DNA from: Acidisoma cellulosilyticum
GTDB taxonomy: Bacteria; Pseudomonadota; Alphaproteobacteria; Acetobacterales; Acetobacteraceae
Direction of reading: 5' to 3'
Assembly: GCF_020621385.1 (NCBI RefSeq)
Contig: NZ_JAESVA010000011.1
Coordinates: 62,001-126,000 of the forward strand
Length of the DNA: 64,000 bases
Shown one piece after another: positions 31,118 through 51,413 of this stretch (within the stretch, counting starts at the first letter, position 1; each line of letters begins with the position of its first letter). The position numbers and the translations under genes were made by a program. The notes beneath the pieces are model-generated. The model worked only from the letters and a program-made list of their open reading frames with translations. It ran no database searches and was not told the origin of the DNA.

Positions 31118-31308
31118 ATCGCATTCTTGCCTAGTGTTGATGTTGCGCTTGGCCGCGTTCAGGAAAGCGGTGGCGGCAGTCTTGGCTTCATCACAGAATA
31201 TTGTGACGCTGTCGCCTCCGAACGCCGCCTTTGTCCGTAACCTTGAAGGTAGCAAAAATTGGAGGGCGACCTGAATCAGACTTACTGGACATTCTTTTGG
31301 AAGCCAAT

Positions 31309-33075: not shown

Positions 33076-33078
33076 CCG

Positions 33079-34296
33079 GTGCCGATGTTCCGCTACCTCG
33101 CGATTGATGCGGCTGGGCGCCTGCAGCGCGGCGTCAGTGAGGCCGAGAGCGAGACGGCCCTGGTCCAAGCGCTGCGCCGAGATGGGCTCTCTCCCTTACG
33201 CGCCGAGCCGGATCGCGGGACTTCCATGATTGGGCGGATTGATTTGACCGTCACGCGTCGTGGATTTCGGCGCCAGGATGTCGCGAATTTCACGCGCGAA
33301 CTCGCCATCATGCTTGCCGCCGGACAGGACCTTGACGGCGCTCTGAGGTTTCTGACGGAAATGGCCCCCAACGCGCGATTGAAGCGCTCCTTGGGGGAGC
33401 TGCGTGACGCCGTCAGGGATGGCAGCCCTTTGGCCAGGGCGATGGCGGAGCAACCCAAGAGCTTCTCCCGTCTTTATGTCGGCCTTGTTCGGGCTGGCGA
33501 GGCCGGCGGCACCCTGGCCGCGACGCTGGAGCGGCTCGCTGTGGTGCTGGAGAGAGAACGCGGGCTGTCGTCTTCCATTCGCTCGGCGATGATCTACCCG
33601 ACATTGCTCCTGGTCGCGATGATCGGCTCGGTATCATTTTTGCTGACATCGGTGCTCCCGGAATTCGTGCCACTTTTTGCCCAGAATGGCGCGAAGCTGC
33701 CCGCCTCGACGCAGTTCATGATTGAGTCCGGCCATATCTTGTCGGTTTACGGGATCTTTATCCTTTTAGCCCTTGTGGTTGCCGGACTGGCCGCGCGTCA
33801 GCTTTTGAAATGGCCCTCCATACGGATGCTGGCCGACCGCCAGCTGCTACGCTTGCCCATCCTCGGCACATTGGCCCGGGAGATTTTGGCGGCGCGGTTT
33901 TGCCGGACCTTTGGGACATTGATGCTTAATGGCGTTCCGCTTATCCCAGCACTGACCATCGTGCGCGAGGTGATCGGCAATACCGCCGCCGTCGCTGCTA
34001 TGGATGCCGTCTCCGCCAGTGCGAAAAGCGGTGCCGGGCTGGCCACGCCTTTGTCGACGTCGAAGCTGTTTCCTGCCCGGATGATCTATTTGCTTCGCCT
34101 TGGGGAGGAGACCGCGCAGCTCGGCCAGCTTTGTCTGCGAGCCGCCGAAATCCATGAGGAAGAAACGCGGCTGTCTCTCCAGCGGCTTGTGGCGATGCTG
34201 GTGCCCGCCATCACCATCGTACTCGGCGCGGCCGTCGCCGGCATCGTCTCCTCTCTCATCCTCGCCATGCTGAGTTTGAACAATCTTGCCGGGTGA
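33079..34296 (+). CDS. gspF: Type II secretion inner-membrane platform protein GspF
   Basis: 405 residues with two repeated GspF/PilC cytoplasmic domains (each about 120 residues: FTRELAIMLAAGQDLDGALRF and FCRTFGTLMLNGVPLIPAL) and about three membrane segments. The last lies near the C-terminus (AGIVSSLILAMLSLNNL). It transmits ATPase motion to pseudopilus assembly. The start may be GTG 33079 or ATG 33085. The stop is overlapped by the gspH start. Confidence 0.94.
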   Translation: MPMFRYLAIDAAGRLQRGVSEAESETALVQALRRDGLSPLRAEPDRGTSMIGRIDLTVTRRGFRRQDVANFTRELAIMLAAGQDLDGALRFLTEMAPNARLKRSLGELRDAVRDGSPLARAMAEQPKSFSRLYVGLVRAGEAGGTLAATLERLAVVLERERGLSSSIRSAMIYPTLLLVAMIGSVSFLLTSVLPEFVPLFAQNGAKLPASTQFMIESGHILSVYGIFILLALVVAGLAARQLLKWPSIRMLADRQLLRLPILGTLAREILAARFCRTFGTLMLNGVPLIPALTIVREVIGNTAAVAAMDAVSASAKSGAGLATPLSTSKLFPARMIYLLRLGEETAQLGQLCLRAAEIHEEETRLSLQRLVAMLVPAITIVLGAAVAGIVSSLILAMLSLNNLAG

Positions 34297-34759
34297 AAGC
34301 CCGCGCCAGCTTGGCACCGTTGATGGGCAGGCGGGGTTTACACTCCTCGAAATGCTTGTCGTGATCGTCATCCTGGGCCTATCGATCGCCCTTGTGGTAT
34401 CGCGCGGTCCTGCGCGTAGCCTTGGCCTGGATAGTGAGGGCGCCGCCGAAGCCATCGCGCAAAACCTGAGGCTCGCACGATCTGAAGCCATATCCACCGA
34501 TCGTCTGGTGGCGTTCAGCCTTGATCCTTCCAACCGCGTCACGGCTCTGGACGGAAAACCCGGTACGTCTCTGCCGCCAGATGTCAGCGTCGCAATCACG
34601 ACCGCGACCGGCGGGATTGTCCGGTCACAGGCCGCCATCACCTTCGCACCGGACGGCAGCTCCTCCGGCGGACGCGTGATAGTGAGCGCCGGCTCCCGGC
34701 ATCTTCAGGTGCTGGTCGATTGGCTCACCGGACGGGTAAACGTGACCGATGCGCCCTGA
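34286..34759 (+). CDS. gspH: Minor pseudopilin GspH
   Basis: 157 residues. A 17-residue leader ending in Gly is followed by FTLLEMLVVIVILGLSIALVV, the class III signal that prepilin peptidase cuts before Phe. The soluble part fits GspH (LRLARSEAISTDRLVAFSL, ITFAPDGSSSGG). The start appears to be a TTG inside the gspF end, the only good start codon in frame before the leader. Confidence 0.88.
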   Translation: MPGESPRQLGTVDGQAGFTLLEMLVVIVILGLSIALVVSRGPARSLGLDSEGAAEAIAQNLRLARSEAISTDRLVAFSLDPSNRVTALDGKPGTSLPPDVSVAITTATGGIVRSQAAITFAPDGSSSGGRVIVSAGSRHLQVLVDWLTGRVNVTDAP

Positions 34760-35180
34760 TCGTGCGGCGGGGTTTACGCTGTTTGAGGTGATCGTCGCCA
34801 TGATCATAGCGGGCCTGGCCCTCGCGGCGCTTTTCTCAGGCGCGGTGACGGGGCTGCGGTCCGCGAGCTCGGCCAGCCATTACGTCGAGGCATTGGCTCG
34901 TGCCCGATCTCACCTGGCGGTCGCGGGCATAGGCATGCCACTCGCGGATGTGACGCAGGCAGGAGACGATGGCGGCGGTTTCCGCTGGCAGCTTCGTATT
35001 CGCCCGATCGCCACCGAGACGCTTCAGGGTGACGCCGGAAAGATTGGCGGCACCGGCAGAAACCCTCGCATCGCGCTCTACAGGATCGACGTGACCATCG
35101 GATGGACGATGGACGGCGGATTGCGGCAGGTCGACCTCAACACGCAGCGGATCGGCCCCGCCGCGGCTGTCACGCCATGA
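34749..35180 (+). CDS. gspI: Minor pseudopilin GspI
   Basis: 143 residues. Short leader (MRPDRAAG) then FTLFEVIVAMIIAGLALAAL, the prepilin processing and assembly segment with Glu at +5. The size and order (H-I-J) match GspI, part of the pseudopilus tip with J and K. It overlaps both neighbours. Confidence 0.85.
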   Translation: MRPDRAAGFTLFEVIVAMIIAGLALAALFSGAVTGLRSASSASHYVEALARARSHLAVAGIGMPLADVTQAGDDGGGFRWQLRIRPIATETLQGDAGKIGGTGRNPRIALYRIDVTIGWTMDGGLRQVDLNTQRIGPAAAVTP

Positions 35181-35776
35181 TCTGGCGCAGATCGGCCGAG
35201 GATGGCTTTACACTGCTAGAGGTCCTCGTTTCCCTGGTCGTGCTGGCGCTGATCATCCTTGGGCTTGCGCAGGGACTGCGTTTCGGTGTGCTGGCCCTTC
35301 ATCGGCAGTCCAGGGTGATAGACCAGCATGGCGATCTCGACGCCGTGGACCGCACGCTGCGCAATCTGATCGAGCAGATCAATCCAGGAAACGCCCATGA
35401 CGCTCCGCAGATAAAGGGCAACGCGACAAGCATGGAGTTTACCTCCGTGCTTCCCTATGGCGCCGCCGCAGCTCTCACGGATCGTCAGGCAGAAGTCCGA
35501 GTTCTGGTGAATAGCAGTCACCAGCTCATTCTACGCTGGGCCCCCTATAGTCACGCGACGTATATTATGCCACCTCAACCGACCGACACGACGTTGTTAC
35601 AAGGTGTCGAGCGCATCGAACTCAGTTATTGGTCAGGGACGGGCAAGGCTGGCTGGCGTAGTGTCTGGGACCGGCCTGACGTCCCGGCAATCATCCGCAT
35701 CCATATCGTCTTCCTCAACCAGGGCGGATTGCATTGGCCTGATATCGTCGCGGCCCCAAGCCGCAACAGACTTTGA
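35177..35776 (+). CDS. gspJ: Minor pseudopilin GspJ
   Basis: 199 residues from ATG 35177. The leader MIWRRSAEDG is followed by FTLLEVLVSLVVLALIILGL. The longer soluble domain (FGVLALHRQSRV, RTLRNLIEQINP, GVERIELSYWSGTG) is typical of GspJ. Overlaps gspI by ATGA. A 129-base gap with no gene follows before gspL. Confidence 0.87.
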   Translation: MIWRRSAEDGFTLLEVLVSLVVLALIILGLAQGLRFGVLALHRQSRVIDQHGDLDAVDRTLRNLIEQINPGNAHDAPQIKGNATSMEFTSVLPYGAAAALTDRQAEVRVLVNSSHQLILRWAPYSHATYIMPPQPTDTTLLQGVERIELSYWSGTGKAGWRSVWDRPDVPAIIRIHIVFLNQGGLHWPDIVAAPSRNRL

Positions 35777-35905
35777 ATAATGTCGGCAGCCTTGAACAAT
35801 CACCGGCGAGGAATGTGCATCTGTTCTCCTGCAAAGCTCGTAAATCCATTGTCCATCCTGATGTCCTTGCCCTAAGGAGGGCGTGAGGATTCGCAAAAGA
35901 AAGAT

Positions 35906-36952
35906 ATGTCCCTGGCAATTCTGAAGGAATTCATCAGGTGGTGGTTCCAACAGATGCTGGGCCTCCTGCCGCAGAGAATAAGCGGCGGACGGCACTGGGG
36001 TAACGCACTCATTCTGGACATCGGCGTCGATAAGTCACATTTTGTGCTGGTTCGGAGGCAGACGTCTCGGGAAACAACACTCGGACGTTTTGCATGGACT
36101 GAGGCTGGGCTGGCGGCCATTCGACGTGGGCGGCGCGTGCGGGGTTCGTCGCTCGACCTTCTCATACGACTGCCGGCCAAGCATCTGTTGGAACACCGTT
36201 TTCCAATTCCTTTAGCCGCTGAGCGCGATGCTGCGAATTTTTTGCGTTACGAGATTGATCGCGTGACGCCGTTCAACGCCGACGAACTGTTCTGGACATT
36301 CGAAACTGAGGGCCGCGATCGTGTGAATGGTCGTCTGTTCATTCGGCTCAGCATGCTGCCCCGGACCGAACTGGCGGTGCCGATTGCCTGGCTGACAGCG
36401 GCAGGGTTATCGCCCATTGCGATCGCGATGGTCTTGGAGGATGAAGACCCGCGATACCTGCCGCTTGCCGGGACGGCGATCGCTCGCCGGAAGATGCGGC
36501 GGTCCGTCGTTGGATTGGCGGCGGCCTGCGCCGTTATGGGTTTAATGGCCGTCGCTCTGCCCTTCGTTGTTCAGCAAGCACGACTGGAGGGTCAGGCAAG
36601 ACAGTCAGCGGTGCTGCTACCACGCGTGGCGGAGGTATTCGCGCTCCAGGCCCGTATCAAGGGTCAGGCCGCAGGTGCCGATGTGATTGCCGCCGAGCGC
36701 ACCCGTGTTGGTGACGCTCTGCAGGCATTGGCGGCCGTTACCGGGATTATGCCCGACAATTCGTTTTTGACGGCTTTGAGTCTGTCGAAGCGACGCCTGG
36801 CACTGACAGGACAGTCCGGCGACGCTGCGGGCCTGATCTCAGCCTTTTCTCGCGCAAAAACGATCACTGATCCGAATTTCTCCGCGCCGGTAACGGCTGC
36901 GCCGAACGGCCAGGGCAATCTGTTTTCCATCACCGCCAGCGTGGCCCCTTGA
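35906..36952 (+). CDS. gspL: Type II secretion assembly protein GspL
   Basis: 348 residues. The N-terminal cytoplasmic part is actin-like and has the PilM/GspL segment NFLRYEIDRVTPFNADELFW (residues 111-130). One membrane helix follows near residues 200-222, and then a periplasmic PilN-like part to the C-terminus. GspL links the GspE ATPase to GspM and the platform. AAAGAAAGAT before the ATG may be its ribosome binding site. Confidence 0.82.
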   Translation: MSLAILKEFIRWWFQQMLGLLPQRISGGRHWGNALILDIGVDKSHFVLVRRQTSRETTLGRFAWTEAGLAAIRRGRRVRGSSLDLLIRLPAKHLLEHRFPIPLAAERDAANFLRYEIDRVTPFNADELFWTFETEGRDRVNGRLFIRLSMLPRTELAVPIAWLTAAGLSPIAIAMVLEDEDPRYLPLAGTAIARRKMRRSVVGLAAACAVMGLMAVALPFVVQQARLEGQARQSAVLLPRVAEVFALQARIKGQAAGADVIAAERTRVGDALQALAAVTGIMPDNSFLTALSLSKRRLALTGQSGDAAGLISAFSRAKTITDPNFSAPVTAAPNGQGNLFSITASVAP

Positions 36953-37524
36953 TCGCCGGTCTGCCCACGGGGCGACGGGGGCAATGGCTCGCGTTGGCAC
37001 TCACGGTCGCAGTGCTTTTTGCCCTATGGGCGGGGATCGTGGCACCGCTGGTCTTCTGGTACGGTACCCGGTCTGACGAGATTGAGCAGCGTGCGCTGCG
37101 GATAGACCGCATGATACACCTGACGCAGGGCATTCCGGCGCTTCTGGCGCAGGCGGCCAATGCACGCAGTCATCAAAGCGCTTTGCGCAGCGATCTGCTG
37201 CCCGCGTCAAGCGACGCTGTCGCGGCGGCGGCCTTGCAGCAGACCCTTCAGGTTGAGGCGAATGACGTTTCGGCGCCCCTCAGCAGCATCGAGACACTGG
37301 CCGTCGAGCCGCGCGGCAAATATCGACGTATCGCCTTGCGCGTCACGCTATCTGCGACCTGGCCACAGTTTCTCCACCTTCTTCAGGCGTTGGAGCAGGG
37401 AACGCCGCGTGTCTTGATCGATGACCTGCAGCTCAGCGCATCGCCCGTTCTGTCTCGTCCGGCCGGTGTTCCGGTGAATGCGACCTTTACCATCCTGGCC
37501 TTCCGGAAGGCGGATGTCTCATGA
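36949..37524 (+). CDS. gspM: Type II secretion protein GspM
   Basis: 191 residues. A short N-terminus, one membrane helix (about residues 12-35, LALALTVAVLFALWAGIVAP), a helical stretch and a ferredoxin-like periplasmic domain fit GspM. The start is a TTG overlapping the gspL stop. It is the expected partner of GspL. Confidence 0.8.
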   Translation: MIAGLPTGRRGQWLALALTVAVLFALWAGIVAPLVFWYGTRSDEIEQRALRIDRMIHLTQGIPALLAQAANARSHQSALRSDLLPASSDAVAAAALQQTLQVEANDVSAPLSSIETLAVEPRGKYRRIALRVTLSATWPQFLHLLQALEQGTPRVLIDDLQLSASPVLSRPAGVPVNATFTILAFRKADVS

Positions 37525-38216
37525 CGTCCTTCGTTTTCCCCGTGCTGGGCGGTATCGCCACCGTCTTGGCCGCCACGATCGCGATAGAAATCAGCGGCGC
37601 GGGTCACCAGACTGAGAATCTGAAGGCCCTGGCATCGACAGCCCGTCACGACACTGCGTGGTCCGCGGATCTGGACGGCACCGAGAGTTGGCCGAGATGG
37701 ATTGAGATCAGCCTCGCCCGTCCTTTGTTCGAGCCAGACAGGCGGCCGCCGGCGGCAGCAGCCGGCGTTGTGTCGAACGACATGCCGCGATTGACCGGAA
37801 TCATCATCACGCCGACCGCGCGCTCCGCGATCTTCGTCGCAGCGGCGGGCGGGCGGGCGATCGTCGTCATGCAGGGCGCCCGCATCAACGACTTTGTCGT
37901 GAGGTCGATCGACGAGGACAAGGTCACCCTGGTGACGTCAACCGGTATCAGGATCGTGCGTCCGAGCTTCGCCATGTCCAAAGCGTCTTCAGATGGGGAG
38001 ACGGGTTTGCAACCCTTGACCCTCGCGCCCGCGGTTTCGGCCTATGCGCCGTCGCAAACGACCCGCCAGACTATTCCGTTTGCGTCAATTCCTGGCTTGA
38101 ATGGACGACCCTTGGGTCTCGTGGCTAGCCCTGACCAAACCTCGCCTCCTGCTGGAGCTGCACTGGACATCGCGCCAGGTTTGCCGCCCCGCGCCCCATT
38201 CGGAAGTTCGCCATGA
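37521..38216 (+). CDS. Type II secretion GspN/GspC-like protein
   Basis: 231 residues. An N-terminal membrane helix (about 5-25) is followed by SLARPLFEPDRRPP and then a small beta-rich domain (PRLTGIIITPTARSAIFVAA, INDFVVRSIDEDKVTL). This corresponds to the homology region of GspC or the GspN proteins of compact alphaproteobacterial systems. The C-terminal ~75 residues are Pro/Ala/Ser-rich and lack a PDZ domain. It would connect the inner-membrane platform to the secretin encoded next. Overlaps gspM and gspD. Confidence 0.75.
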   Translation: MTSFVFPVLGGIATVLAATIAIEISGAGHQTENLKALASTARHDTAWSADLDGTESWPRWIEISLARPLFEPDRRPPAAAAGVVSNDMPRLTGIIITPTARSAIFVAAAGGRAIVVMQGARINDFVVRSIDEDKVTLVTSTGIRIVRPSFAMSKASSDGETGLQPLTLAPAVSAYAPSQTTRQTIPFASIPGLNGRPLGLVASPDQTSPPAGAALDIAPGLPPRAPFGSSP

Positions 38217-40513
38217 AGCGCCTGCTGACCCTTACATTGGCTTTTTCCATCGTTGGCTGCGCGCAGCAGGCCAGCATGCCGACGGAGCGGCTGTCGCCCC
38301 CGATCCTGCCGTCTTCGGATCACCAGGATTCGCGCGTCGACGGACCGATCGGCGCGACCAATCTTCTGCCAGCCTCCAGCCAGTCCTACGGCGCGCCCGC
38401 GACAGTGTCGCTGCCGGCGACCGCGGACAGCAGCGGTGGCGGCACAGTCTCCCTCGTTTTCTCCGACACGGATATCCGGGAGGTGGTCGCCCAAATCCTC
38501 GGCTCTATTCTCCAGGTGAGTTACACGATTGATCCGGCCGTGCATGGGACTGCGACGCTTCATACGGCTGGCCCGCTGGCCCGTTCGCAACTGCTTCCGA
38601 CGCTGCAGGCCCTTCTGGCGCAAAACGGCGCAACGCTGGTTCAGTCCGGCGGCCTCTATCGCGTTATTCCCACCCCCGCCGGTGTGGCCAGCAGCACGAT
38701 CGCCGGTAGCCCCAATACCTCCGGCAGCCAGCTCTATCAGCTCCGCTATACCTCGGCCGTTGATCTCGCTCGTGTGTTACAACCCTTTGTCGGCCAGAAT
38801 GCCAAGATCATCGCCGATCCGGGCAGTAATAGCCTGGTGATCAGCGGCGATCCCGATACGCGTGCGACCCTGGCGGCCCTGGCGCAGGCATTCGACATCG
38901 ATCTTCTCGCCGGCCAATCCTACGCTCTGCTGCCCACGCCCGAAGGCGCGGCTCAGGATTTCGCGACGTCGTTGCAAAGCGCGCTGCGGAGCCAAGGGGG
39001 TGGCCTGTCGAATATCGTGCGGGTGGTGCCGATGGAGCGGATTAGTTCGGTTCTGGTCGTCGCGTCACAACCCCAGTTCATCCAGCAGGCGCAACGCGTG
39101 TATCAGCTTCTCGTGCGCCAGCAGCGGCTCACGGTACGAAGCTGGCATGTCTATTACCTTCAGGACAGCAAGGCGGAAGACGCGGCTTATATTCTTCAGC
39201 AGGCATTCACGCCGGGCAACATCACGGCGTCGCCGAGCAGTTCGGACCAGAGCAATGCGAGCGCTGGGTCGGAAAGCCACGGCAATGGAACCACGCCGAT
39301 GGCCGATACCGGTAGCGGCGGATCCTCGCTGAACGGTCTTGGGTCTTCTGCCGGCATCGGCACAGGCAGCTCTCTCGCCAGTGGCGGGTCGCAAAGTTCC
39401 GGCGCGTCACCGCAAGGCGCTAGCCAGAGCACGACCCCCGCGCAGACCCCTTCCAATCCGCTGCTCGGCGGTCTGAGCCCGACGGGGGGAAGCGGCGGTG
39501 GCGGCGATGACGCCGGCACGGATGCGATCAGGATCATCCCCGATCCCCAGAACAATTCGGTGATCACCTATACGACGCAGGAGGAGGAGGATGTCGTCGA
39601 GGCGATGCTTCGCAAGATTGATATCCTGCCGCTACAGGTGCGCATCGATGCGACGATCGCTGAGGTGACCCTCAACAACCAGTTACAATACGGGACGCAA
39701 TTCTTTTTCCAGTCCGGAGGCGTCAACGGGATACTCAATAATGCCGCCGCCACGACGTCCTACGCGGTTCCGAGAGCGGTCGCGCTCGCGACCACATTTC
39801 CGGGCTTTATTCTGAGCGGCAACGGCGCCGGCGGCGCGCCCATCGCTCTTCAGGCCCTGCAAGCCGTGACGACCGTGCATGTTCTGTCGTCACCCGAGCT
39901 GATGGTTCTGGACAATCAGACGGCACATTTGCAGGTGGGCGATCTGGTGCCTTACCTTACGTCCAGCTCGCAAAGCACCATTACGACCAATGCGCCGGTC
40001 ATCAACAGCGTGAGTTATCAGCCGACCGGCGTCATCATGAATGTGACGCCGCGCGTCAATAGTGGTGGCCTCGTGACCCTCGATATCTCGCAGGAGGTCA
40101 GCGCGATCGATTCCTCGGTCAGCACCACGACGACGGGAATTTCGTCACCGACCTTCTCAGAGCGCAACGTGACCTCCCGCGTCGTCATCCAGGATGGTCA
40201 GACGGTTGGACTGGCAGGGCTGATCACGGACAGCGCCACGAAAAGCAACTCCGGGATTCCCTTCCTTAAGGATATTCCAATTCTGGGTCTGCTCGCCGGG
40301 ACCCAGAGCAACCAGCGGACAAGGACAGAGCTTCTGGTTCTGATCACGCCCCATGTCTTGTACAACCAGCGGGACGCGCGGGCGCTGACATCGGACCTGG
40401 AGGATTTGCTGAAGAACGCGGCAGCCGTGCCGACGGAGCTTAATGGCCAGCGATCATCCGGGTCGGACGATCCGAATGAGCGCGTGCGCCGGGCCCTGCA
40501 ATTCGGCCAATGA
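38213..40513 (+). CDS. gspD: Type II secretion secretin GspD with its own lipobox
   Basis: 766 residues. The signal sequence ends in IVGC, a good lipobox with Cys16, so the secretin is probably lipidated, as in the liposecretin HxcQ. N-domains follow (VSLVFSDTDIREVVAQILG for N0; N1-N3 to about residue 470). A Ser/Gly/Ala-rich insert lies at about 340-436. The secretin domain occupies about 475-740, with VLSSPELMVLDNQTAHLQVG and VGLAGLITDS. No separate pilotin gene is recognised. Overlaps gspK by ATGA. Confidence 0.93.
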   Translation: MKRLLTLTLAFSIVGCAQQASMPTERLSPPILPSSDHQDSRVDGPIGATNLLPASSQSYGAPATVSLPATADSSGGGTVSLVFSDTDIREVVAQILGSILQVSYTIDPAVHGTATLHTAGPLARSQLLPTLQALLAQNGATLVQSGGLYRVIPTPAGVASSTIAGSPNTSGSQLYQLRYTSAVDLARVLQPFVGQNAKIIADPGSNSLVISGDPDTRATLAALAQAFDIDLLAGQSYALLPTPEGAAQDFATSLQSALRSQGGGLSNIVRVVPMERISSVLVVASQPQFIQQAQRVYQLLVRQQRLTVRSWHVYYLQDSKAEDAAYILQQAFTPGNITASPSSSDQSNASAGSESHGNGTTPMADTGSGGSSLNGLGSSAGIGTGSSLASGGSQSSGASPQGASQSTTPAQTPSNPLLGGLSPTGGSGGGGDDAGTDAIRIIPDPQNNSVITYTTQEEEDVVEAMLRKIDILPLQVRIDATIAEVTLNNQLQYGTQFFFQSGGVNGILNNAAATTSYAVPRAVALATTFPGFILSGNGAGGAPIALQALQAVTTVHVLSSPELMVLDNQTAHLQVGDLVPYLTSSSQSTITTNAPVINSVSYQPTGVIMNVTPRVNSGGLVTLDISQEVSAIDSSVSTTTTGISSPTFSERNVTSRVVIQDGQTVGLAGLITDSATKSNSGIPFLKDIPILGLLAGTQSNQRTRTELLVLITPHVLYNQRDARALTSDLEDLLKNAAAVPTELNGQRSSGSDDPNERVRRALQFGQ

Positions 40514-41316
40514 TGGGTGTCATTCCGGCGAGGACGAGGCAGGAGGGCGGCTTCGCCCTGCTCATCGTGCTTTGGGCCCTTGTCCTGCTGACGCTGATTT
40601 TCACGCGCCTTGTCTCGGCTGGCCGCACAGAAACGGAGGTTGCCTTCAACCTCCGCGCTGCGGCCCAGATGCAGACCGAGGCGGACGGTCTCGTCTATAG
40701 TACGATATTCAGTCTCCTTGGCCCGGCCGCTAGCCAGTGGAAAGCCGATGGCACCATCCACCGCGTCTCGCTCTCGAATGGAAGCGCCGAGATTGCAATT
40801 GTCGATCTCGGTGGCCGGGTTAATCCCAATACCGCTTCAGCGCCGCTCCTGACGGCTTTGCTTCATCAGGTCGGAGCGGACGTGGTCACGGCGGATGCGG
40901 TCGGTGAAGCCATTTCGGATTGGCGTTCTCCTGATGCCCAGGGGCGATTTGAGGCGCCACAGTATCATGATGCCGGGCTGCCTTACATTCCGCCGGGCGC
41001 GCCGTTCAACAGTCTGACGGAAGTCAATCTTGTCTTGGGCATGACCCCGGCGCTCTTTTCCAGGCTGGCACCTCATCTTTCGATCTACAATCGCGACAAC
41101 ACGGACCCGGCGATTGCCGATCCCGCGGTCCGGGCCGCACTGAAACAGGTTGGGATCGATATCGACGCAGCGCAGACAAAGCGTCCGCTCCGAGATGTTT
41201 TTATTACAACGAAGATCGTGTCAAAAGACGGAAAGATCGCAATAAGACAAGCAAATGTCGAATTACAGACGTCGTCTTCAGGCCTTCCATTCAAAGTTCT
41301 CACTTGGGCAGATTAA
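40510..41316 (+). CDS. gspK: Minor pseudopilin GspK
   Basis: 268 residues. A 14-residue leader precedes FALLIVLWALVLLTLIFTRL; as usual for GspK, the +5 Glu of other pseudopilins is absent. The large soluble domain has VDLGGRVNPNTASAPLLTAL and AISDWRSPDAQGRFEAPQY. GspK caps the pseudopilus tip with I and J. It is the last plus-strand T2SS gene before the ferritin-like gene. Confidence 0.9.
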   Translation: MMGVIPARTRQEGGFALLIVLWALVLLTLIFTRLVSAGRTETEVAFNLRAAAQMQTEADGLVYSTIFSLLGPAASQWKADGTIHRVSLSNGSAEIAIVDLGGRVNPNTASAPLLTALLHQVGADVVTADAVGEAISDWRSPDAQGRFEAPQYHDAGLPYIPPGAPFNSLTEVNLVLGMTPALFSRLAPHLSIYNRDNTDPAIADPAVRAALKQVGIDIDAAQTKRPLRDVFITTKIVSKDGKIAIRQANVELQTSSSGLPFKVLTWAD

Positions 41317-41478
41317 AAATGCCAACCCCGAAAAGGCTGTTTTGAATCTGTCACGCGCTCGTGAGAGCAACGCGCTGCGATTTTATTACTTGGACGTTGC
41401 ATCCGGTTTATGTTGCCCATCGTAAAATGGAAGCGTCGCAATTTTTGCGGCAAAAGAACCATGATGGAGGATACCCGA

Positions 41479-42372
41479 GTGGCCGACTCATCCGAGACCA
41501 TCGAAGTCAACCGCGGAACCAATCGTCGCGGCTTAATGAGGAATGTGGGGCTGGGCCTTGCGGGAACAGCCCTTGCCGCCGCTGGTACCGCGGGCCTCGG
41601 TTTGGGCACAACCCCCGCGCGTGCAGACGCGACGCTTGATGGCGAAATTCTGAATTTCGCTCTCAACCTCGAATATCTCGAAGCGGAATTCTATCTCCGT
41701 GCCGTCACCGGCAGCGGCATTCCGTCAAATCTGACAGGCGGCACTGCCACCGTGACGGGCGGTTCTCTCGTTCCGTTCCAAAACACCGCGATTGCTTATC
41801 TTGCCCAGAAGATCGCGGTCGATGAATTGGCACATGTCACCTTCCTGCGAACCGCTCTCGGCTCGGCCGCGGTCGCTGAGCCGAATATCGATCTGAGCGA
41901 CAGCTTTACGACATTGGCCATCGCCGCCGGCCTGATCGTCGCGGGCCAGACCTTCGACCCCTTCTCGAGCGAGACGAACTTCCTGATCGGCGCTTATATC
42001 TTTGAGGATGTCGGCGTCACGGCCTATGCCGGTGCTGCAGCCTCCTTGACGGCGGCCACTCTGCCCTATGCCGCGAGCATTCTCGCGGTCGAGGCATATC
42101 ATGCGGGTGCTATCCGCGGACGTCTCGGCGAAATCGGCGGATCGGCCGCGACAAATATGATCTCGGCGCTTCGCCAGACCTTGTCCGGGGTTGGTGATAA
42201 CGGCCTCAACTACCAGAGCAACATGTTCAACTTCACGAACGTGGACAGCAACGGCCAAGCCTATCGCCGGACTCCGCAGCAGGTGCTGAGCATCGTCTAC
42301 GGTGGCGGCACAAACAATGGTCTATTCTACCCCAACGGCATGAACGGTGCCGTCACGACGACAACCTCCTAA
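41479..42372 (+). CDS. Tat-exported ferritin-like domain protein
   Basis: 297 residues from GTG 41479, chosen because GGAGG at 41466-41470 sits eight bases upstream; ATGs at 41461 and 41464 are alternatives. The signal peptide carries NRRGLMRNVGLGLAGTALAA and ends near PARADA, so it is a Tat substrate. The mature protein is a four-helix ferritin-like fold with paired ExxH motifs (DELAHVTFL and VEAYHAGAI) plus ALNLEYLEAEFYLRA and FEDVGVTAYA as further metal-ligand helices. It belongs to the periplasmic or secreted ferritin-like group related to desiccation proteins. It lies between gspK and gspG, making it a candidate T2SS cargo. Confidence 0.82.
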   Translation: MADSSETIEVNRGTNRRGLMRNVGLGLAGTALAAAGTAGLGLGTTPARADATLDGEILNFALNLEYLEAEFYLRAVTGSGIPSNLTGGTATVTGGSLVPFQNTAIAYLAQKIAVDELAHVTFLRTALGSAAVAEPNIDLSDSFTTLAIAAGLIVAGQTFDPFSSETNFLIGAYIFEDVGVTAYAGAAASLTAATLPYAASILAVEAYHAGAIRGRLGEIGGSAATNMISALRQTLSGVGDNGLNYQSNMFNFTNVDSNGQAYRRTPQQVLSIVYGGGTNNGLFYPNGMNGAVTTTTS

Positions 42373-42382
42373 TCGCCGGTCC

Positions 42383-42419
42383 TGTCAGGCAGCGGATAGG
42401 TATGATCCGCTGCCTGACA
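42383..42419. terminator. Bidirectional terminator hairpin
   Basis: A 15-bp perfect stem (42383-42397 with 42405-42419) encloses a 7-base loop. It lies between the convergent ends of the ferritin-like gene and gspG. The left arm contains GTCAGGCAGCGGAT and the right arm its exact complement. No long T tract flanks it on either side. Confidence 0.75.
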
Positions 42420-42427
42420 ATCTCTCC

Positions 42428-42943
42428 TCAATTGCAAATTTGGGCGTCGCCTGAAGCCGTTCCGCTCGGACCCAGGGAACATAGATCGTAATCGTGACCG
42501 CTTCTCTCCGAAGGAGACCGGTACACGTAAGGATGGTTCCACGGATCCAGCGGCGATTGCGAGGATTGCAGATAGGGGCCGTTCCAATTGCCGACATCGG
42601 CGGGGGCCTGGACCAGCGCCCCTAATCCTTGGTCTGTCGACGGATAGCTCCCTACGTCAAGCTTGTACATGTCGAGCACGGATTGCAGCCGGGCAATCGA
42701 CTGATGGGCGATGGATACGCGCGCACCGCCGAGTTGCCGCAAGACCGCGGGTGCAACGAACCCGATAAGAAGCCCCAGGATGACAATAACGACCAGGAGT
42801 TCGAGGAGCGTGAACCCATCGTCGCTCCTGCTGCCACGCGGCGTCTCCTGAGGACCGGTCTCATTTCCGGAAATCCGCGTATTTACACGGCATCCTGGAT
42901 GAGTAAGCTTCCTGAGGATGGCTGCGAAGGCTCCTGGCATCAT
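42428..42943 (-). CDS. gspG: Major pseudopilin GspG, cysteine-pair variant
   Basis: 171 residues from ATG 42943 (AAGGA upstream). The leader is unusually long (about 43 residues) before FTLLELLVVIVILGLLIGFV. The body fits GspG: MYKLDVGSYPSTDQGLGALV and PWNHPYVYRSPSERSGHDYD. The C-terminal loop, which binds calcium in classical GspG (SLGADG...), reads SLGPSG here. It is bracketed by Cys155 and Cys170, suggesting a disulfide in place of calcium. It is the only core pseudopilin gene on the minus strand. Confidence 0.9.
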   Translation of the reverse strand: MMPGAFAAILRKLTHPGCRVNTRISGNETGPQETPRGSRSDDGFTLLELLVVIVILGLLIGFVAPAVLRQLGGARVSIAHQSIARLQSVLDMYKLDVGSYPSTDQGLGALVQAPADVGNWNGPYLQSSQSPLDPWNHPYVYRSPSERSGHDYDLCSLGPSGTASGDAQICN

Positions 42944-43352
42944 GATTCCTTTTCTTTCTTGTATGGCGCTAGTCGCATCAATATACAATTTGCCGCCACG
43001 GGTTCTGCCGGCGATCAATGCCGTTGAAGGGGGTCGTGTCGGCACTATTCATGAAAACCTTGATCACTCACAGGATCTCGGTGTCATGCAAATCAATACG
43101 CTGTGGATTCACCCACTGGCTCTTTACAGCCGTCGGGCTGATTTGGATGTGAGAAACAGGCTGATTGCCGATCCATGTTTCAACATCGCGGCCGCAGGCG
43201 CCATTCTGTCCAGCTATCTTGCCGAGGAGCATGGCGACCTCATGCGCGCGGTGGGTGACTACCACTCCCACACGCGTTTGCTCAATCTCTCCTACCGCGC
43301 GAAGGTCATTCGCTCCGCGGCAAGGCTTTTTGAACCTGTGCCTGGCCGTTAG
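42942..43352 (+). CDS. Lytic transglycosylase (SLT, VirB1/IagB type)
   Basis: 136 residues from ATG 42942, or 144 from ATG 42918. A short hydrophobic N-terminus (MIPFLSCMALVASIY) may be a signal sequence. The catalytic Glu lies in PAINAVEGG, and the family's GVMQINTLWI and ADPCFNIAAAGAILSSYL segments follow. Such small transglycosylases open peptidoglycan for secretion machines. The gene starts inside the 5' end of gspG on the other strand, so the two start codons overlap, and its role is most likely to help the T2SS cross the cell wall. Confidence 0.85.
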   Translation: MIPFLSCMALVASIYNLPPRVLPAINAVEGGRVGTIHENLDHSQDLGVMQINTLWIHPLALYSRRADLDVRNRLIADPCFNIAAAGAILSSYLAEEHGDLMRAVGDYHSHTRLLNLSYRAKVIRSAARLFEPVPGR

Positions 43353-43469
43353 CGCGGATCCCGGTCAGATGGAATCATCTGTCCGGGTGAAGATGCTCGC
43401 AAAAACAATAAACCAGAGCGGCAGCTGTCAGCGTAAGCGAACAGGAAAAGCTCTAGGGTCGCCCTTTCT

Positions 43470-44465
43470 TTACCGGGGCAATGCCACAAGATCGATATGG
43501 TCGGTTTCGCGCTCCAGAATGACGGTCATGATCCTGTCAACGTCCCGGCCACAGGGGTTAAGAGTGCCATCCGGCTCCACGATCGAAAGGTCGTAGTCCA
43601 GGGCCGTGATCCATTCCAAATATCCCTTGCCCGTTATGCCGGAGATTCCCGGCATCATTGATGGGCCAAATTCAGTGACGATCACCGGGCGGTTGCGTCT
43701 GATCGTCTCTATGCCACCGAGCAGAGCGTTGTATTCTGCCCCCTCGACATCGACTTTGATAAAATCCACGCGATCTTGCTCGCCGAGGAGTGCGTCCAAG
43801 CGGACGCAAGCCACCGTTTCCGCGTCCAATAACTGTCTGACATCTGCGGGTAAACCGGATGTCGTTCCGTTGGAATGCGAGGTGTTCAGGATAAGAAGTC
43901 CGGTCTCCCGCCCTGCGGCAGTTTGCACAATCCGCACATTCTCAAAGCCGTTTGCTCGCCGGCTGGCTTCGATCAGTCGGACGTTTCGTGGATTAGGTTC
44001 AATAGCCAGGACGCGTCCGGTTGGCCCGACAAGCGCAGCCGACAGCATCGTGAAATAACCAATATTGGCGCCGATATCCAAGACGCTCATGCCTTCCTTA
44101 AGGACGGACTGAAAGACATGAGCGACCTCACGCTCGTAATTGTCCTCGCGCACGTATCGTCCGACAGAGGCATCGTCGGATGACGAGTAGATCGAGAATT
44201 CTGCCAGGCGTGTGAGCACGACATCGTCTGACAAAGCGGAATGGCCAAGCCGCCGCCGCGCGAATTCGAGACTCGTGAGATAGCTTGCGACGATGCTCGA
44301 AAGCTCCTCTCCGGCGCGGCTTGAATGACCGCGCCACTCCTCCTGATTGGGCATGCGACCGAGCAGAAGCCGAAAGCAGGCGAGGATGTCAGACTCCGTA
44401 GCGGTACTGCTGTACGGAAATTCCCATGGCGCAGGCTCGGTCGACCGCGCGCCGCGCTTTCTCAT
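43470..44465 (-). CDS. FkbM-family methyltransferase with DUF4214-like N-terminus
   Basis: About 331 residues if ATG 44465 is used; an in-frame extension to 44540 exists and neither start has a clear ribosome binding site. Residues about 20-75 resemble a DUF4214 unit (FRLLLGRMPNQEEW then ASYLTSLEFARRR). The rest is a class I SAM methyltransferase of the FkbM type: SVLDIGANIGYFTMLSAAL, RVLAIEPNPRNVRLIEAS, then VDFIKVDVEGAEYNALLGG. FkbM enzymes usually O-methylate sugars in glycans. It is divergent from the giant FkbM-GT4 gene across 210 bases. Confidence 0.8.
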   Translation of the reverse strand: MRKRGARSTEPAPWEFPYSSTATESDILACFRLLLGRMPNQEEWRGHSSRAGEELSSIVASYLTSLEFARRRLGHSALSDDVVLTRLAEFSIYSSSDDASVGRYVREDNYEREVAHVFQSVLKEGMSVLDIGANIGYFTMLSAALVGPTGRVLAIEPNPRNVRLIEASRRANGFENVRIVQTAAGRETGLLILNTSHSNGTTSGLPADVRQLLDAETVACVRLDALLGEQDRVDFIKVDVEGAEYNALLGGIETIRRNRPVIVTEFGPSMMPGISGITGKGYLEWITALDYDLSIVEPDGTLNPCGRDVDRIMTVILERETDHIDLVALPR

Positions 44466-44675
44466 GAAGGGCAATCGGATAGCACCTGCTCCATTTTGGA
44501 ACGGATTGTCACATAAACTGGTCCTATGCCAGCTAACCAAACTTGTCGAGTGCTGCTTGGCACCATCAGGCGCGTCCCGGGTAAGGTGCCGCTCCGGCCT
44601 TGCATGGGCTCAAGGACATCGGCAATCTGGCCCGGATTGGGCCCCCCTCGAAGTCCCAGTCACGGGAGGCTAGTC

Positions 44676-47600
44676 GTGACGTTTGTGTCTTACGCCCAGA
44701 ATTTTGAAGACGTGATGCTTTGGCGAGCATTATCGGGTGTCGAGAGGGGCTTCTACATCGATGTCGGAGCGGCTCATCCCGATATCGATTCTGTAACGCG
44801 CGCTTTCTATGATCGGGGCTGGACGGGACTTAACATCGAACCGACCGCCGAATACAGCCTCCGCTTGACCGCAGCGCGTCCGCGTGATCGCAATCTTCGC
44901 TTGGCAGTCGGCGAGCATCCGGGCCGCGCCACATTTTTTGTTGTGGACGGCACCGGCCTGTCCACGCTCGACGCTTCAGCCGTTGCCAGCTTGCAGGCCG
45001 CCGGAATGGAGGTTCGACGTGACGAGGTCGAAGTCGCAACGCTCCGTGATCTCTGGCTGCAATACGCCCCCGCAGAGGTGCATTTTCTAAAGATCGACGT
45101 TGAAGGGGCGGAACGCGCGGTACTGGCTGGTGCCGACTTTCATAAATGCCGGCCTTGGATCGTCATCGTCGAAGCCACGGCGCCGATGTCCACCGTTGAG
45201 ACCCACAAGGACTGGGAGCCGCTTCTCCTGCAGAACGGCTATGGTTTTGTCTGGTTCGATGGCCTGAACCGGTTTTACGTCGCAGACGAGAGGCGCGATC
45301 AGCTCGCGCCGGCGTTTCGGACGCCGCCCAATGTTTTTGATGATTTCATTCGGGCCGGCGATAGCGAATGGGCGCGGCGCATTCATCAGGCTGAAACCCG
45401 CGTGACGGCGCTTCAAGAACGCGCTGTGCTTGCGGAAACGCGCATAGAACGAGAGGTCGCTGCAGCCGAGACACAGATCAAACGACGTGACGTGGAGATC
45501 GTGAATCTGCGCGCATCATTGCGTGCCGAAGAGCAGAAGCTGGCGGCGGCGCAGGCTGCCGCAGAGGCGGCTGAGGCTGCCGCGGCGACGGCTCAGGGGC
45601 AAGCGATCGCGCAGTCCAATAGAGCGGAGTCGGATTCGGAAAGGGCATCGATCTATCAAAGGCGCGAGGCCGAAGCCCGCGCGGCGTTCGAGGCGATCCG
45701 CAGTAGCACGTCATGGCGCGTCACAGCGCCGTTGCGCAAACTGCGCTCGAAAGCGGCATCGCCCGGCCCAGTTCTGAGCGAGCCATTAGCCGTGCTGCCC
45801 CCGGCTGTTCTCGCCTTGCCACACGAGCCTGCTGTGGCGTTACCCATCACGCTGCCGGCGCTGCCGCCGCCACCACCGCAGTCATTTCTTGGGCAGAACC
45901 GGCGCGTCGTCCATCAGTTCCATTCCGGCTCGGCGGTGGGAGACGCGATCACGAATGCCATGTTCCTGACGCGCCGACATCTGCGCGCCATGGGCTACGA
46001 GAGCGATATCTTCGTCGAACATCGCGATGTGAACCTGGCCGCGGAACTGCGGCTCATGGCCGAACTGCCGATCCATGATCGCTATGTGCTGATCGTCCGC
46101 TATTCGATGGGGTTCGACGCGTTTGGCCAGATTGCCAGCCTGGCTGCGCCCAAAATTCTGCTCTATCACAACATCACCCCTCCTCAGTTCTTCGAGGGGA
46201 TTCCTTCCTTGCAACACTATACCGCGCTCGGTCGCGCGCAATTGCCCGAGTGGCGCAGCCGCGTCGTGACATCTCTCGCGGATAGCGACTACAATGCCAT
46301 CGAGTTGCGCAATCTGGGCTTCGATCCCGTTCAGACCTGCAATCTGTTGCTTGATATTGATGCGATCGCTGCACGTGCGGCCCTTCACAAGGCGCCGAAA
46401 GGCGATATTTTCACCATTCTATTTGTCGGCCGCGTCTGCGCGTCTAAGGCACAGGCCGATCTTGTCGAGGTCTATGCGGCCTTTCGCGCGCGCTTCGCCA
46501 AGCCCTCGCGCCTTGTCATTGTCGGTCGGCACGGTGGGGTCGAGGACGCCTATGTCACAGACGTCAAGGCGCGCATCGCCGCTCATGGGATGACCGATGA
46601 TGTGCTGCTCACCGGTCTGATTTCGGATGAGGAGCGGGACCGCTGGTACGCGGCAGCGGATGTCTATCTGTCGATGAGCCTGCATGAGGGTTTCGGCGTG
46701 CCGCTGGCCGAGGCGATGGTCTTTGACCTTCCTGTGCTGGCGCGGCCGGCGGGGGCTGTGCCCTATACTCTCTGTGGCACGGCTGGCCTTCTTGAGGACG
46801 ACAGCGCTGACGCAGTCGCGACCAGGCTGATCGATTTGGCGGAAGATACCGATTGCCGCCGCAATATGCTTGCGCGGCAGCAATTGGCCTTGCGGCAATT
46901 CGCGCTGGATCAGCAGAAGCCGGCCCTGTTGCAGGCGCTGGCGGCTGCGGGCGCCGCGCCGCCGGCCGTGCCGGAAGCGCGAACACTTCTGCTCGCCAAC
47001 GCAAACTTCGTCGTGACCGGGCATGTGAACGGCAGCTACAGTCTGGCGTCTATCAATCGCGGCCTTGCGCTTACCCTGGAGGAGGCGAAAGGCGGTTCGG
47101 TTCGGCTATTGCCTGTCGAGGGCGCGCCGACCGATGGGCTGACGCAAGTGCCGGCGGCGGAGATGGTGGCGCTGACCGATCTGATGCGGAGACCGAAATC
47201 GGGGACCGGGCCTGAGATCGTCATCAGCCAGCACTATCCCGTCTTCGTTCCGCCCGATGCCGGTGACTTGCTGCTCGCCCTCTTCTTCTGGGAAGAGTCT
47301 GTCATCCCTGCGGCGACTATTGCTGTCCTGAACGCCTCGTTCCGTGGCGTTCTTGCGCCGTCGCATTTTGTGGCGAAGGTGCTTCTCGATTCCGGCTTGA
47401 CGATCCCGCTGCGTGTGGTCGGCTACGCGCCCCGCCTGGACTCTTTCCGCGCAATCGGTGCCGCGCACGCCGTCCGCGACGCGGGGCCCTTTACCTTTCT
47501 CCATGTCTCATCGGGGTTTCCGCGCAAAGGCGTCGATGTGCTGTTGGCGAGTTATGCGGACGCATTCCAGGCGCAAGACAATGTCCACCTGATCATCAAG

Positions 47601-49210
47601 ACCTTTCCCAACCCGCACAACGAGGTCGCGTCGCAAATCGCGGACCTGCAGGCGGCAAATCCAGATCTCGCTCAGATTACCCTGCTCGATCGGGATATGG
47701 ATGAGACGGATCTTTTGGAGCTCTATCGCAGCGCCAATGCCATGGTTCTGCCGACGCGCGGTGAAGGTTTCAATCTGCCCGCCGCCGAGGCGATTGCCGC
47801 GGGCTTGCCGGTGATCGTTACCGGGTTTGGCGGCCATATGGATTTCTGCGGAGCGGATCGCGCGCGTTTGATCGACTATCGCTTCGACCGCTCCGGCAGC
47901 CATCTTGCAAAGTCGGGCTCGGTCTGGGCGGAGCCCGACGCCTCTGATCTCACGCAAGCGCTGCAAGAGGCGTTCCGCAAAGGGCCGGTGGCGGCAAAAG
48001 CGGCCGCCCTCGACGATACGGATGCTTTTGCCCGCAGGGTGGCAAGCGCTTCCGTGGACATCCTCATGAATCCGCCGCCGCCGCCGATGCGGCTTGGTTG
48101 GATGTCAAGCTACGATGTCCGCTGTGGAATTGCCGAGTATTCACGGCACCTCATAGAGGCCCTCCCGGCCTCGGATCGGATCGGATCTGTCACCATCTTC
48201 GCAGATAAGAGGACAAGCGCTCAATCCCTCACCGACAACGGCCATAAGGTGATGGCAAGCTGGACACTCGGTCTTCCGGACGGCATCAGGCCAATCGAAC
48301 ATGCCATTGCATCCGATGACCCACATGTTCTCGTCATCCAGCATCAGCCCGGATTGTTTCAATGGCAGGAACTGGCGAAGCTTGTTTCTTCCGCAGCTTT
48401 GCGCGCCCGGATCGTTGTCCTGGTGCTTCATTCGACGACGCGCATTTGGGACATTCCGGAAGAGCTGCGGCCGCCGGTAATCGCTGCTTTGAACAGCATC
48501 GCACGTGTTATTGTGCATACATTGGATGACCTCAACCAGTTAAAGAAACTGGGTCTGATTGAAAACGTGACGCTATTGGCACACGGTGCGCGGGTGCCGG
48601 AATCCGAACCGACGCCGGCACGCGCAATCACCCGTAGCTCATTCCCCGTGATCGGGTGCTATGGCTTTTTTCTGCCGGACAAAGGCATCCCGCAGCTTAT
48701 TGAGGCTATCGCGTTGCTGCGCTCGGAATATCCAAGCATCAGGCTCCGCCTTGTCAACGCCGATTACGGGATACCGGAGTCAGCCGCGCAAATCGCTCTG
48801 TGCAGGGCATTGGCGGAGAGCAAGGGTCTCGCCGATGCGGTCGAGTTCCATACGGACTTTCTTCCCCATGCCGAGTCACTCAGCCTACTGGCCGGATGCG
48901 ATGTTGTGGCACTGCCCTACCAAACATCGAAGGAAGCATCCAGCGCCGCGCTCAGAACCGCACTTGGCGCCGGCGCTCCGGTTGTGGTGACCCCCTTGGG
49001 GCTATTCAACGAGGCCGCCTCGGCGGTGGCTCGTCTTGGTGGCACAGATACCGCGAGCATCGCCGAAGGCATTGGCCTCCTATTGGAAGACCAAGAGCGA
49101 CGTGGCGCGCTGAAACGTGATGCCCGCACATGGCTTGAGGAGCGTGCTTGGCCTTCGGTCGCTCTGAAATTTCAAAACATGCTGTTGGGTTTACACGTCC
49201 AAAAGCAGAT

Positions 49211-49223
<13 letters not shown>
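44676..49223 (+). CDS. Four-part glycan enzyme: FkbM methyltransferase, coiled coil, three GT4 glycosyltransferase modules
   Basis: 1515 residues from GTG 44676, six bases after GGGAGG. Residues 1-205 are an FkbM methyltransferase (GFYIDVGAAHPDIDSV, VHFLKIDVEGAERAVLAG). About 236-340 is an Ala/Glu-rich coiled coil, followed by a Pro/Ala linker. Three GT-B/GT4 modules come next. The first (about 406-760) has LHEGFGVPLAEAMVFDLPV near 668. The second (about 775-1130) has TRGEGFNLPAAEAIAAGLPV near 1026. The third (about 1138-1505) ends in PYQTSKEASSAALRTALGAG. The first two have the E-x7-E-type donor motif; the third is less canonical. It may build and cap a short glycan. Confidence 0.85.
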
Positions 49224-51114
<1,891 letters not shown>

Positions 51115-51413
51115 TCAAGGTTCGCCCCGTTCCTGATACTCTGATACCCGGTTCCGTCTTGATGGCAAGAGGCAAGCCTCTCATTGAGGTAGGGCAAAGT
51201 CGTCCTGCTTCGTCGCGGCGCGGCGATCGCCTGTCGCGCTGCATCTGCTTCAGCTTTGCGGGCGTTAATCTAAATTGGATTTGCCACGATACTGGGGGAG
51301 GGCCGATCACGTTGATGGAGGAGCCGAAGCCATGTATCCCTCTGTCATTGAGCTCTCTCCAAGTTTTGCTGCTTTGCAACAGGGATGGGGGCAAGCTAGA
51401 AGACGGGGTTATA

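What the first reader, a model, noticed from the sequence alone, without database searches (positions are those of the whole stretch)
41479..42372. Ferritin-like Tat protein embedded in the T2SS genes
It sits between gspK and gspG, with a Tat signal and paired ExxH diiron motifs. T2SS systems export folded proteins that arrive through Tat, so this is a strong cargo candidate. Secretion of a ferritin-like protein by a dedicated T2SS would be novel.
Basis: inference. Interest (0 to 1): 0.7.

Follow-up and report, generated by a model that had tools for sequence, protein, structure and literature searches.

The report
Exported ferritin-like protein in secretion locus
A metal-binding ferritin-like protein carrying an export signal is encoded inside a type II secretion locus, and related bacteria often keep the two together, which makes it a good but unproven candidate for a protein released to the cell surface.

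Summary
The gene is real: window 41479-42372 (+) encodes a 297-aa Ferritin_2 protein (PF13668, E 5e-38) with a twin-arginine signal and a complete dinuclear-metal ligand set. It is the only Ferritin_2 gene found in its genome, inside a near-complete T2SS locus (31231-55796), between gspK and a convergent gspG.

Of 249 genomes of the family (probably Acetobacteraceae), 28 carry the protein; 25 of these carry the T2SS, against 62 of 221 without it. In 16 of the 28 (12 of 17 genera) a T2SS gene lies within about 10 kb, in at least six gene orders. In one genome an extra gspC sits 119 bp upstream of the ferritin gene. Aerophototrophica has it in a T2SS locus with a PhoX phosphatase.

Against a strict link: 12 of 28 show no T2SS gene nearby, three show no T2SS, and many relatives are actinobacterial. 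A giant glycosyltransferase is an equally strong partner (16 shared genomes). Characterised relatives are desiccation-related phosphatases, so "ferritin" may mislead.

Best reading: Tat-exported cargo of this T2SS acting at the cell surface. Secretion itself is untested.

The parts
41479..42372 (+). Ferritin_2 protein, 297 aa, Tat-type signal peptide, predicted four-helix bundle with dinuclear-metal ligands, no cysteine
   Evidence: AlphaFold2 mean pLDDT 84.9, helices 53-77, 103-130, 165-187, 195-218
41479..41625 (+). predicted twin-arginine signal peptide, N-RR-GLM motif at residues 15-20, likely cut after A-R-A (residue 49); placed by eye
   Evidence: RR kept in 115 of 121 rows
42383..42419 (.). 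15-bp perfect hairpin between the convergent ferritin and gspG genes, possible two-way terminator (no T run)
   Evidence: -29.4 kcal/mol, z -4.97; not listed by the T-run terminator scan
31231..33075 (+). gspE ATPase
   Evidence: PF00437 over cut-off; TIGR02533 under its cut-off
33079..34296 (+). gspF
   Evidence: PF00482 over cut-off; TIGR02120 under its cut-off
34286..34759 (+). gspH
   Evidence: PF12019 E 1.3e-10
34749..35180 (+). gspI (by position; N-methylation motif)
35177..35776 (+). gspJ (by position; N-methylation motif; start codon not settled)
35906..36952 (+). gspL (PilN-like domain, by position)
36949..37524 (+). gspM
   Evidence: NF040576 over cut-off
37521..38216 (+). gspC-like, named by position between gspM and gspD; no Pfam or NCBIfam hit
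38213..40513 (+). gspD secretin
   Evidence: TIGR02517 over cut-off
40510..41316 (+). gspK
   Evidence: PF21687 over cut-off
42428..43045 (-). gspG major pseudopilin
   Evidence: TIGR01710 over cut-off
42918..43352 (+). lytic transglycosylase (SLT), recurrent neighbour of gspG
43470..44540 (-). FkbM-type methyltransferase
44526..49223 (+). giant FkbM plus three GT4 glycosyltransferase stretches; recurrent partner of the ferritin gene
49211..51114 (-). NDP-sugar epimerase (49211-50218, named by reading the sequence) and GDP-mannose 4,6-dehydratase (50137-51114)
51159..54944 (+). GT2/GT4 glycosyltransferase
54984..55796 (+). gspO prepilin peptidase, completing the T2SS set
   Evidence: PF06750 and PF01478

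Best explanation
The protein is a Tat-exported, dinuclear-metal Ferritin_2 protein. After folding and loading metal in the cytoplasm it crosses the inner membrane by Tat, and the T2SS encoded around it most likely moves it out to the cell surface or the medium. There it probably acts with the surface polysaccharide made by the neighbouring glycosyltransferases, in protection against drying or oxidative stress, by metal chemistry or by hydrolysing phosphate esters. Shown: the gene, the family, the ligand set, a Tat-type signal, the T2SS locus, and recurrent linkage in other genera. Inferred: passage through the T2SS, surface location, metal content and catalytic activity.
For: Co-occurrence: 25 of 28 ferritin genomes have the T2SS against 62 of 221 without ferritin (one-sided Fisher p 3.7e-10); by genus 17 of 17 against 33 of 85, p 1.0e-6. 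Linkage: a T2SS gene within about 10.5 kb of a ferritin copy in 16 of 28 genomes, 12 of 17 genera (14 and 10 if two gspC-only cases are dropped), in at least six gene orders. Linked copies lie on several branches (14 changes, at least 10 forced by starred branches). Within the genus the four genomes with the window-type T2SS have the gene; the fifth, G004, has only the other T2SS type and lacks it. In G091 an extra gspC-like gene lies 119 bp upstream of the ferritin gene on the same strand, while the main T2SS locus has its own gspC-like gene between gspM and gspD. Another lineage, Aerophototrophica crusticola, has the gene beside gspK and a PhoX phosphatase between gspM and gspC. Tat then T2SS is an established route (PlcH, PlcN, PA3910, PA4140; PMC4899797, passages). 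The protein has no cysteine.
Against: No secretion experiment exists here. 12 of 28 ferritin genomes show no T2SS gene near any of their copies, including G083, G098, G113 and G243, whose contigs are long; five of the 12 are limited by contigs under 10 kb (G069, G172, G189, G231, and one of G135's four). G135, G189 and G231 have ferritin but no GspD or GspG, although G189 and G231 are 73% and 67% complete. 62 genomes have the T2SS without ferritin. The glycosyltransferase is as strong a partner (16 shared genomes, p 1.5e-11) and stays with ferritin where no T2SS gene is near (G243, G107, G113). The sphingomonad, actinobacterial and acidobacterial copies seen are not T2SS-linked. Co-occurrence tests ignore shared ancestry.
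Confidence: 0.55

Rival explanations
1. The protein is a periplasmic stress protein. It and the T2SS are both parts of a surface-polysaccharide and stress island, so they travel together without the ferritin passing through the T2SS.
For: Ferritin lies by the giant glycosyltransferase in genomes with no T2SS gene near it (L103, L107, L108); 16 of 26 glycosyltransferase genomes carry ferritin. Tat alone delivers to the periplasm.
Against: Linked loci without the glycosyltransferase in the fetched stretch (L045, L075, L112, L117) still have ferritin among T2SS genes. The extra gspC beside ferritin in G091 is not explained.
Confidence: 0.3
2. Neutral hitch-hiking: the gene sits in the locus by history and has no functional tie.
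For: Within the genus a single ancestral arrangement would explain four genomes. Unlinked relatives exist.
Against: Linkage in 12 of 17 genera with different gene orders; a rough chance estimate gives about 2% per genome and p about 7e-17 for 12 of 17, under assumed locus and genome sizes and independence.
Confidence: 0.07
3. The protein is an accessory part of the T2SS machine (assembly or cell-wall passage) rather than cargo.
For: Its position among gsp genes, like the recurrent lytic transglycosylase.
Against: 62 of 87 T2SS genomes lack it, the own genome's second T2SS locus has none, and actinobacterial loci carry it without T2SS genes nearby.
Confidence: 0.05

Closest known systems
Ferritin_2 family PF13668: RvFeMP-1 (RvY_06210), DRB0118, PCC13-62, Rds1
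   Same: Same Pfam family; signal peptide; E, ExxH, E and an acidic helix-4 ligand (PMC11616004). RvY_06210 (8kce, 8w9k) is the top Foldseek hit (probability 1.00, E 0.049).
   Different: RvFeMP-1 has an IgG-like domain and uses D135 and D162 at the metal site. Here, judged by spacing only, the D135 place is G179 and helix 4 carries E205xxH208. The Foldseek match is weak (E above 0.001).
Tat-dependent T2SS substrates of Pseudomonas aeruginosa (PlcH, PlcN, PA3910, PA4140)
   Same: Exported by Tat, then by the T2SS; three of the four are named phospholipases C or a phosphodiesterase/phosphatase (PMC4899797, passages).
   Different: No sequence relation was tested. Those are shown by experiment; this one is not. 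No ferritin-like T2SS substrate turned up in the paper searches.
Surface-retained T2SS cargo with a Tat signal, PnlH of Dickeya
   Same: Tat signal and surface location as a T2SS effector (PMC12802150, passages).
   Different: PnlH keeps an uncleaved signal. Here an A-R-A site suggests cleavage. That PnlH is encoded beside its own T2SS is recalled, not looked up.

Membership tests
Ferritin_2 (PF13668) | whole-protein score over the Pfam cut-off | tested here: met
   130.7 bits against 24.7
Ferritin_2 (PF13668) | four-helix bundle with conserved dinuclear-metal ligands | tested here: met
   model helices; ligands kept in 115 to 121 of 121 rows. Metal binding itself not tested
RvFeMP-type metallophosphatase | metal site with the helix-3 second acid (D135) and helix-4 aspartate | tested here: inconclusive
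   by spacing G179 stands at the D135 place and E205/H208 in helix 4; no superposition made
RvFeMP-type metallophosphatase | phosphatase activity | not testable with these tools
   needs an assay
Iron-storage ferritin | 12- or 24-subunit shell storing iron | not testable with these tools
   no multimer prediction; no PDB sequence hit for the protein at E 1 or less
Type II secretion system | secretin, ATPase, platform, pseudopilins, prepilin peptidase | tested here: met
   gspD, E, F, G, H, K, M and O over a Pfam or NCBIfam cut-off; C, I, J and L by position
T2SS cargo | signal peptide for Sec or Tat | tested here: met
   RR motif and hydrophobic stretch read from sequence; no signal-peptide predictor was run
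T2SS cargo | loss of secretion in a T2SS mutant | not testable with these tools
   bench test needed

The most novel reading that the evidence does not exclude
A surface-protection module in which a T2SS, a large multi-domain glycosyltransferase and a Tat-exported dinuclear-metal Ferritin_2 protein work together. The metal protein is secreted by its own T2SS, in one lineage with its own GspC adaptor, and acts in the polysaccharide coat during drying or oxidative stress. To my knowledge it would be the first ferritin-fold T2SS cargo.
Probability: 0.4. Interest if true: 0.7.

Novelty: new variant of a known kind. Interest (0 to 1): 0.52.

Why it matters
PF13668 proteins occur in tardigrades, resurrection plants, fungi and desiccation-tolerant bacteria, and their physiological role is open (PMC11616004). 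A genetic tie to a T2SS gives a concrete place of action, the cell exterior, and a direct test. It would also extend known T2SS cargo to a ferritin fold, and an extra GspC beside a single cargo gene would be a clean case for testing GspC as a cargo selector.

Tried and rejected
Accessory T2SS part: rejected as the main reading because 62 of 87 T2SS genomes lack the gene. Iron-storage ferritin: no PDB sequence hit with the protein at E 1 or less; the profile search found three hits with E 0.46-0.59, taken as chance; Foldseek put RvY_06210 first, with aldehyde-deformylating oxygenases and phenylacetyl-CoA monooxygenase among the next rows and all 133 hits above E 0.001, of which the top 50 were shown. 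Promoter scan of 40400-43500 found no sigma-70-like site, and the DNA just before and at the start of the gene matched 2 of 7 genomes, own included, so own promoter or read-through from gspK stays open. Class-wide survey: 2 of 289 genomes, own included.

Paper searches: ferritin-like with type II secretion and Tat listed 13 papers; I opened only PMC12502724 (Asaia released proteins), whose main text has 'ferritin' once, for Dps; the other 12 were seen as listings. Ferritin-like domain with secretome and type II secretion system gave 0 papers; type II secretion with Acetobacteraceae and ferritin gave 0. PF13668 gave 6, of which I opened PMC11616004 (abstract, sections 6, 9, 12, passages) and PMC4480369 (one table passage: PF13668 counted in two predicted fungal secretomes). 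One search gave 3, one opened for passages (PMC12802150); one search gave 6, one opened for passages (PMC4899797); one search listed 12 of 926, none newly opened; one search gave 1, not opened. The library lacks most subscription journals, so absence there is weak.

Rows dropped or labelled by hand: in the ferritin tree proteins under 200 aa and repeats with the same core were left out (135 to 120, plus the query); 8 copies with short flanks were left unlabelled. The L141 label rests on one gspH match and may be chance. In the GspD tree I labelled L149 (G021) as linked although its ferritin lies on a neighbouring contig beside gspG, and L132, L136 and L137 as not linked although ferritin in those genomes lies beside other T2SS genes. 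Named loci that repeat G-handle contigs were removed from the neighbour count and the GspD tree.

Full report
OBSERVATION. The frame 41479-42372 (+) is open, starts with GTG preceded by GGAGG at 8 nt, and encodes 297 aa. The 91% identical orthologue of G003 has no in-frame start upstream of the same GTG. Pfam gives Ferritin_2 (PF13668) alone, E 5.2e-38; NCBIfam gives nothing. It is the only Ferritin_2 gene found in the window's genome. Residues E65, E116/H119, E176 and E205/H208 form the E / ExxH / E / ExxH set, kept in 119, 121/121, 121 and 120/115 of 121 aligned rows; R16 and R17 are each kept in 115. The AlphaFold2 model (62-sequence alignment) has mean pLDDT 84.9 and pTM 0.81, with long helices 53-77, 103-130, 165-187 and 195-218 and a low-confidence N-terminus. 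The protein has no cysteine.

LOCUS. gspE, F, H, I, J, L, M, C, D and K run on + from 31231 to 41316, then the ferritin gene. gspG follows on the minus strand and gspO, the prepilin peptidase, lies at 54984-55796. gspI, gspJ, gspL and gspC are named by position. Between ferritin and gspG is a perfect 15-bp hairpin. Around them are a lytic transglycosylase, an FkbM methyltransferase, a 1565-aa protein with an FkbM domain and three GT4 stretches, GDP-mannose dehydratase and another glycosyltransferase.

RECURRENCE. Among 60 relatives, 9 (own included) have the protein. Contigs of G001, G030, G077, G091, G107, G158, G206 and G243 have the same lengths as named records (L023; L030; L028; L024 and L027; L031; L026; L025; L022). 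Most of these are titled Acetobacteraceae, Acidisphaera or Rhodospirillales, so the family is probably Acetobacteraceae; this is inferred from the records, not stated by a tool. In 249 genomes of the family, 28 have the protein (17 of 102 genera) and 87 have a GspD relative at E 1e-60 or better (50 of 102 genera). The overlap, counted by me from the two lists, is 25 genomes and 17 genera; one-sided Fisher p is 3.7e-10 by genome and 1.0e-6 by genus. These tests ignore ancestry. The three without GspD (G135, G189, G231) also lack GspG, and all are of one genus, g18; G135 is 99% complete, G189 73%, G231 67%. A fourth g18 genome, G021, has both.

LINKAGE. I fetched stretches around all 46 ferritin places (own from the window) and searched them with the window's genes. 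A T2SS gene lies within about 10.5 kb of a copy in 16 of 28 genomes: G000, G001, G002, G003, G010, G021, G022, G030, G077, G091, G123, G126, G132, G158, G187, G206. None was found in 12: G069, G083, G098, G107, G108, G113, G135, G155, G172, G189, G231, G243. Contigs under 10 kb limit G069 (5.8 kb), G172 (8.5 kb), G189 (4.1 kb), G231 (8.5 kb) and one of G135's four (4.8 kb). G077 and G091 are linked by gspC only. The orders differ: K-ferritin-G (own genus); ferritin-slt-G-K-D (G022, G030, G132, Pararoseomonas L029); D-G-slt-ferritin (G010); H-ferritin-L-M-C (G126, Rhodopila L045); K-ferritin-slt-G (G123); ferritin-D (G187); F-E-O-G-slt-ferritin-ferritin (G206). In the ferritin tree of 121 rows, 23 linked rows need 14 changes of state, at least 10 forced by starred branches, against a shuffled mean of 21.4. 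The counts cannot tell gain from loss, and the tree is a quick one.

WITHIN THE GENUS. The GspD tree puts the window's GspD with those of G003, G002 and G001. The genome's second T2SS, on the same contig at 149-151 kb, groups with the only one found in G004, the one genus member without ferritin. Its locus has no ferritin match (L123). So window-type T2SS and ferritin are present or absent together in five of five genomes. That is also what joint loss of one linked block would give.

ORPHAN GSPC. In G091 a 214-aa GspC-like protein (L104:731-1375) lies 119 bp upstream of the ferritin gene on the same strand, while the main T2SS locus (L162) has a 194-aa GspC-like protein between gspM and gspD. 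Neither has a Pfam hit; they are named by similarity to the window's positional gspC and, for L162, by place. In G077 a gspC-like gene diverges from ferritin and is followed by a PF04185 phosphoesterase. Whether G077's main locus has another gspC could not be seen, because its contig ends after gspD. GspC's role in cargo choice is recalled.

OUTSIDE THE FAMILY SAMPLE. Of the 80 best named loci, 9 show T2SS genes. Six are contigs already counted (L023 = G001, L024 = G091, L025 = G206, L026 = G158, L028 = G077, L030 = G030); the new ones are L029 (Pararoseomonas), L045 (Rhodopila) and L075. L075, Aerophototrophica crusticola (Rhodospirillaceae), has gspD, gspL, gspM, a PhoX phosphatase on the other strand (E 3.9e-143), gspC, gspK, then ferritin; its gspC scores under the Pfam cut-off (PF11356, E 3.1e-4). 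55 loci are actinobacterial, without T2SS matches. In such one-membrane cells Tat export alone would place the protein outside, so a T2SS would give a two-membrane cell the same result. That is inference.

GLYCOSYLTRANSFERASE. The C-terminal 965 aa of the giant protein match 26 of 249 family genomes at E 1e-90 or better; 16 of these also have ferritin and 10 do not (my count), Fisher p 1.5e-11. In G243, G107 and G113 ferritin stays beside it with no T2SS gene in the fetched stretch. In the 16 fetched T2SS stretches without ferritin (L123-L138) no match to it was listed. This is the main support for the rival reading of a surface-stress island.

ACTIVITY. PMC11616004 (abstract, sections 6, 9 and 12 and passages read) reports that PF13668 proteins RvFeMP-1, RvFeMP-2 and DRB0118 dephosphorylate metabolites, that DRB0118 inactivation lowers desiccation survival, and that true substrates are unknown. 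RvY_06210 is the best Foldseek match of the model, at a weak E of 0.049. By spacing, helix 4 here carries E205xxH208 and the place of RvFeMP-1's D135 is G179, so the site looks more like a classic di-metal carboxylate centre. No superposition was made, so activity is open.

VERDICT. The cargo idea is partly supported: the association is real and repeated, the secretion step is untested. I place cargo at 0.55, periplasmic member of a shared island at 0.30, chance neighbour at 0.07 and T2SS part at 0.05.

Noticed in passing
G000 contig C11:139000-158900 (L123), outside the window: A second T2SS locus lies about 47 kb beyond the first on the same contig, with its own gspG, slt and gspO and no ferritin match; its GspD groups with G004's.
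   Followed up: partly
window 44526-49223: A 1565-aa protein with one FkbM domain and three GT4 stretches recurs beside the ferritin gene across genera and is listed in none of the 16 fetched ferritin-less T2SS stretches L123-L138.
   Followed up: partly
window 26823-29363: 846-aa glycine-rich protein with a weak pectate-lyase-like adhesive domain (under cut-off) and a C-terminal Hint_2 domain, upstream of the T2SS; another possible surface protein.
   Followed up: no
L075:12306-14936: PhoX alkaline phosphatase encoded inside the T2SS locus of Aerophototrophica crusticola, on the strand opposite to the gsp genes, near the ferritin gene.
   Followed up: partly
   Followed up: no
L020, L080: Two sphingomonad Ferritin_2 copies have a Cys after the signal (LAAC, LSAC), so they look like lipoproteins; both loci hold two copies in tandem.
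   Followed up: no
Actinobacterial loci such as L065:740-1297 and L055:11730-12566: Genes that look like tatA/tatB and tatC (named by eye) each lie within 6 kb of ferritin in 6 actinobacterial loci; an ECF-sigma-like gene (named by eye) recurs in 12 loci of several phyla.
   Followed up: no
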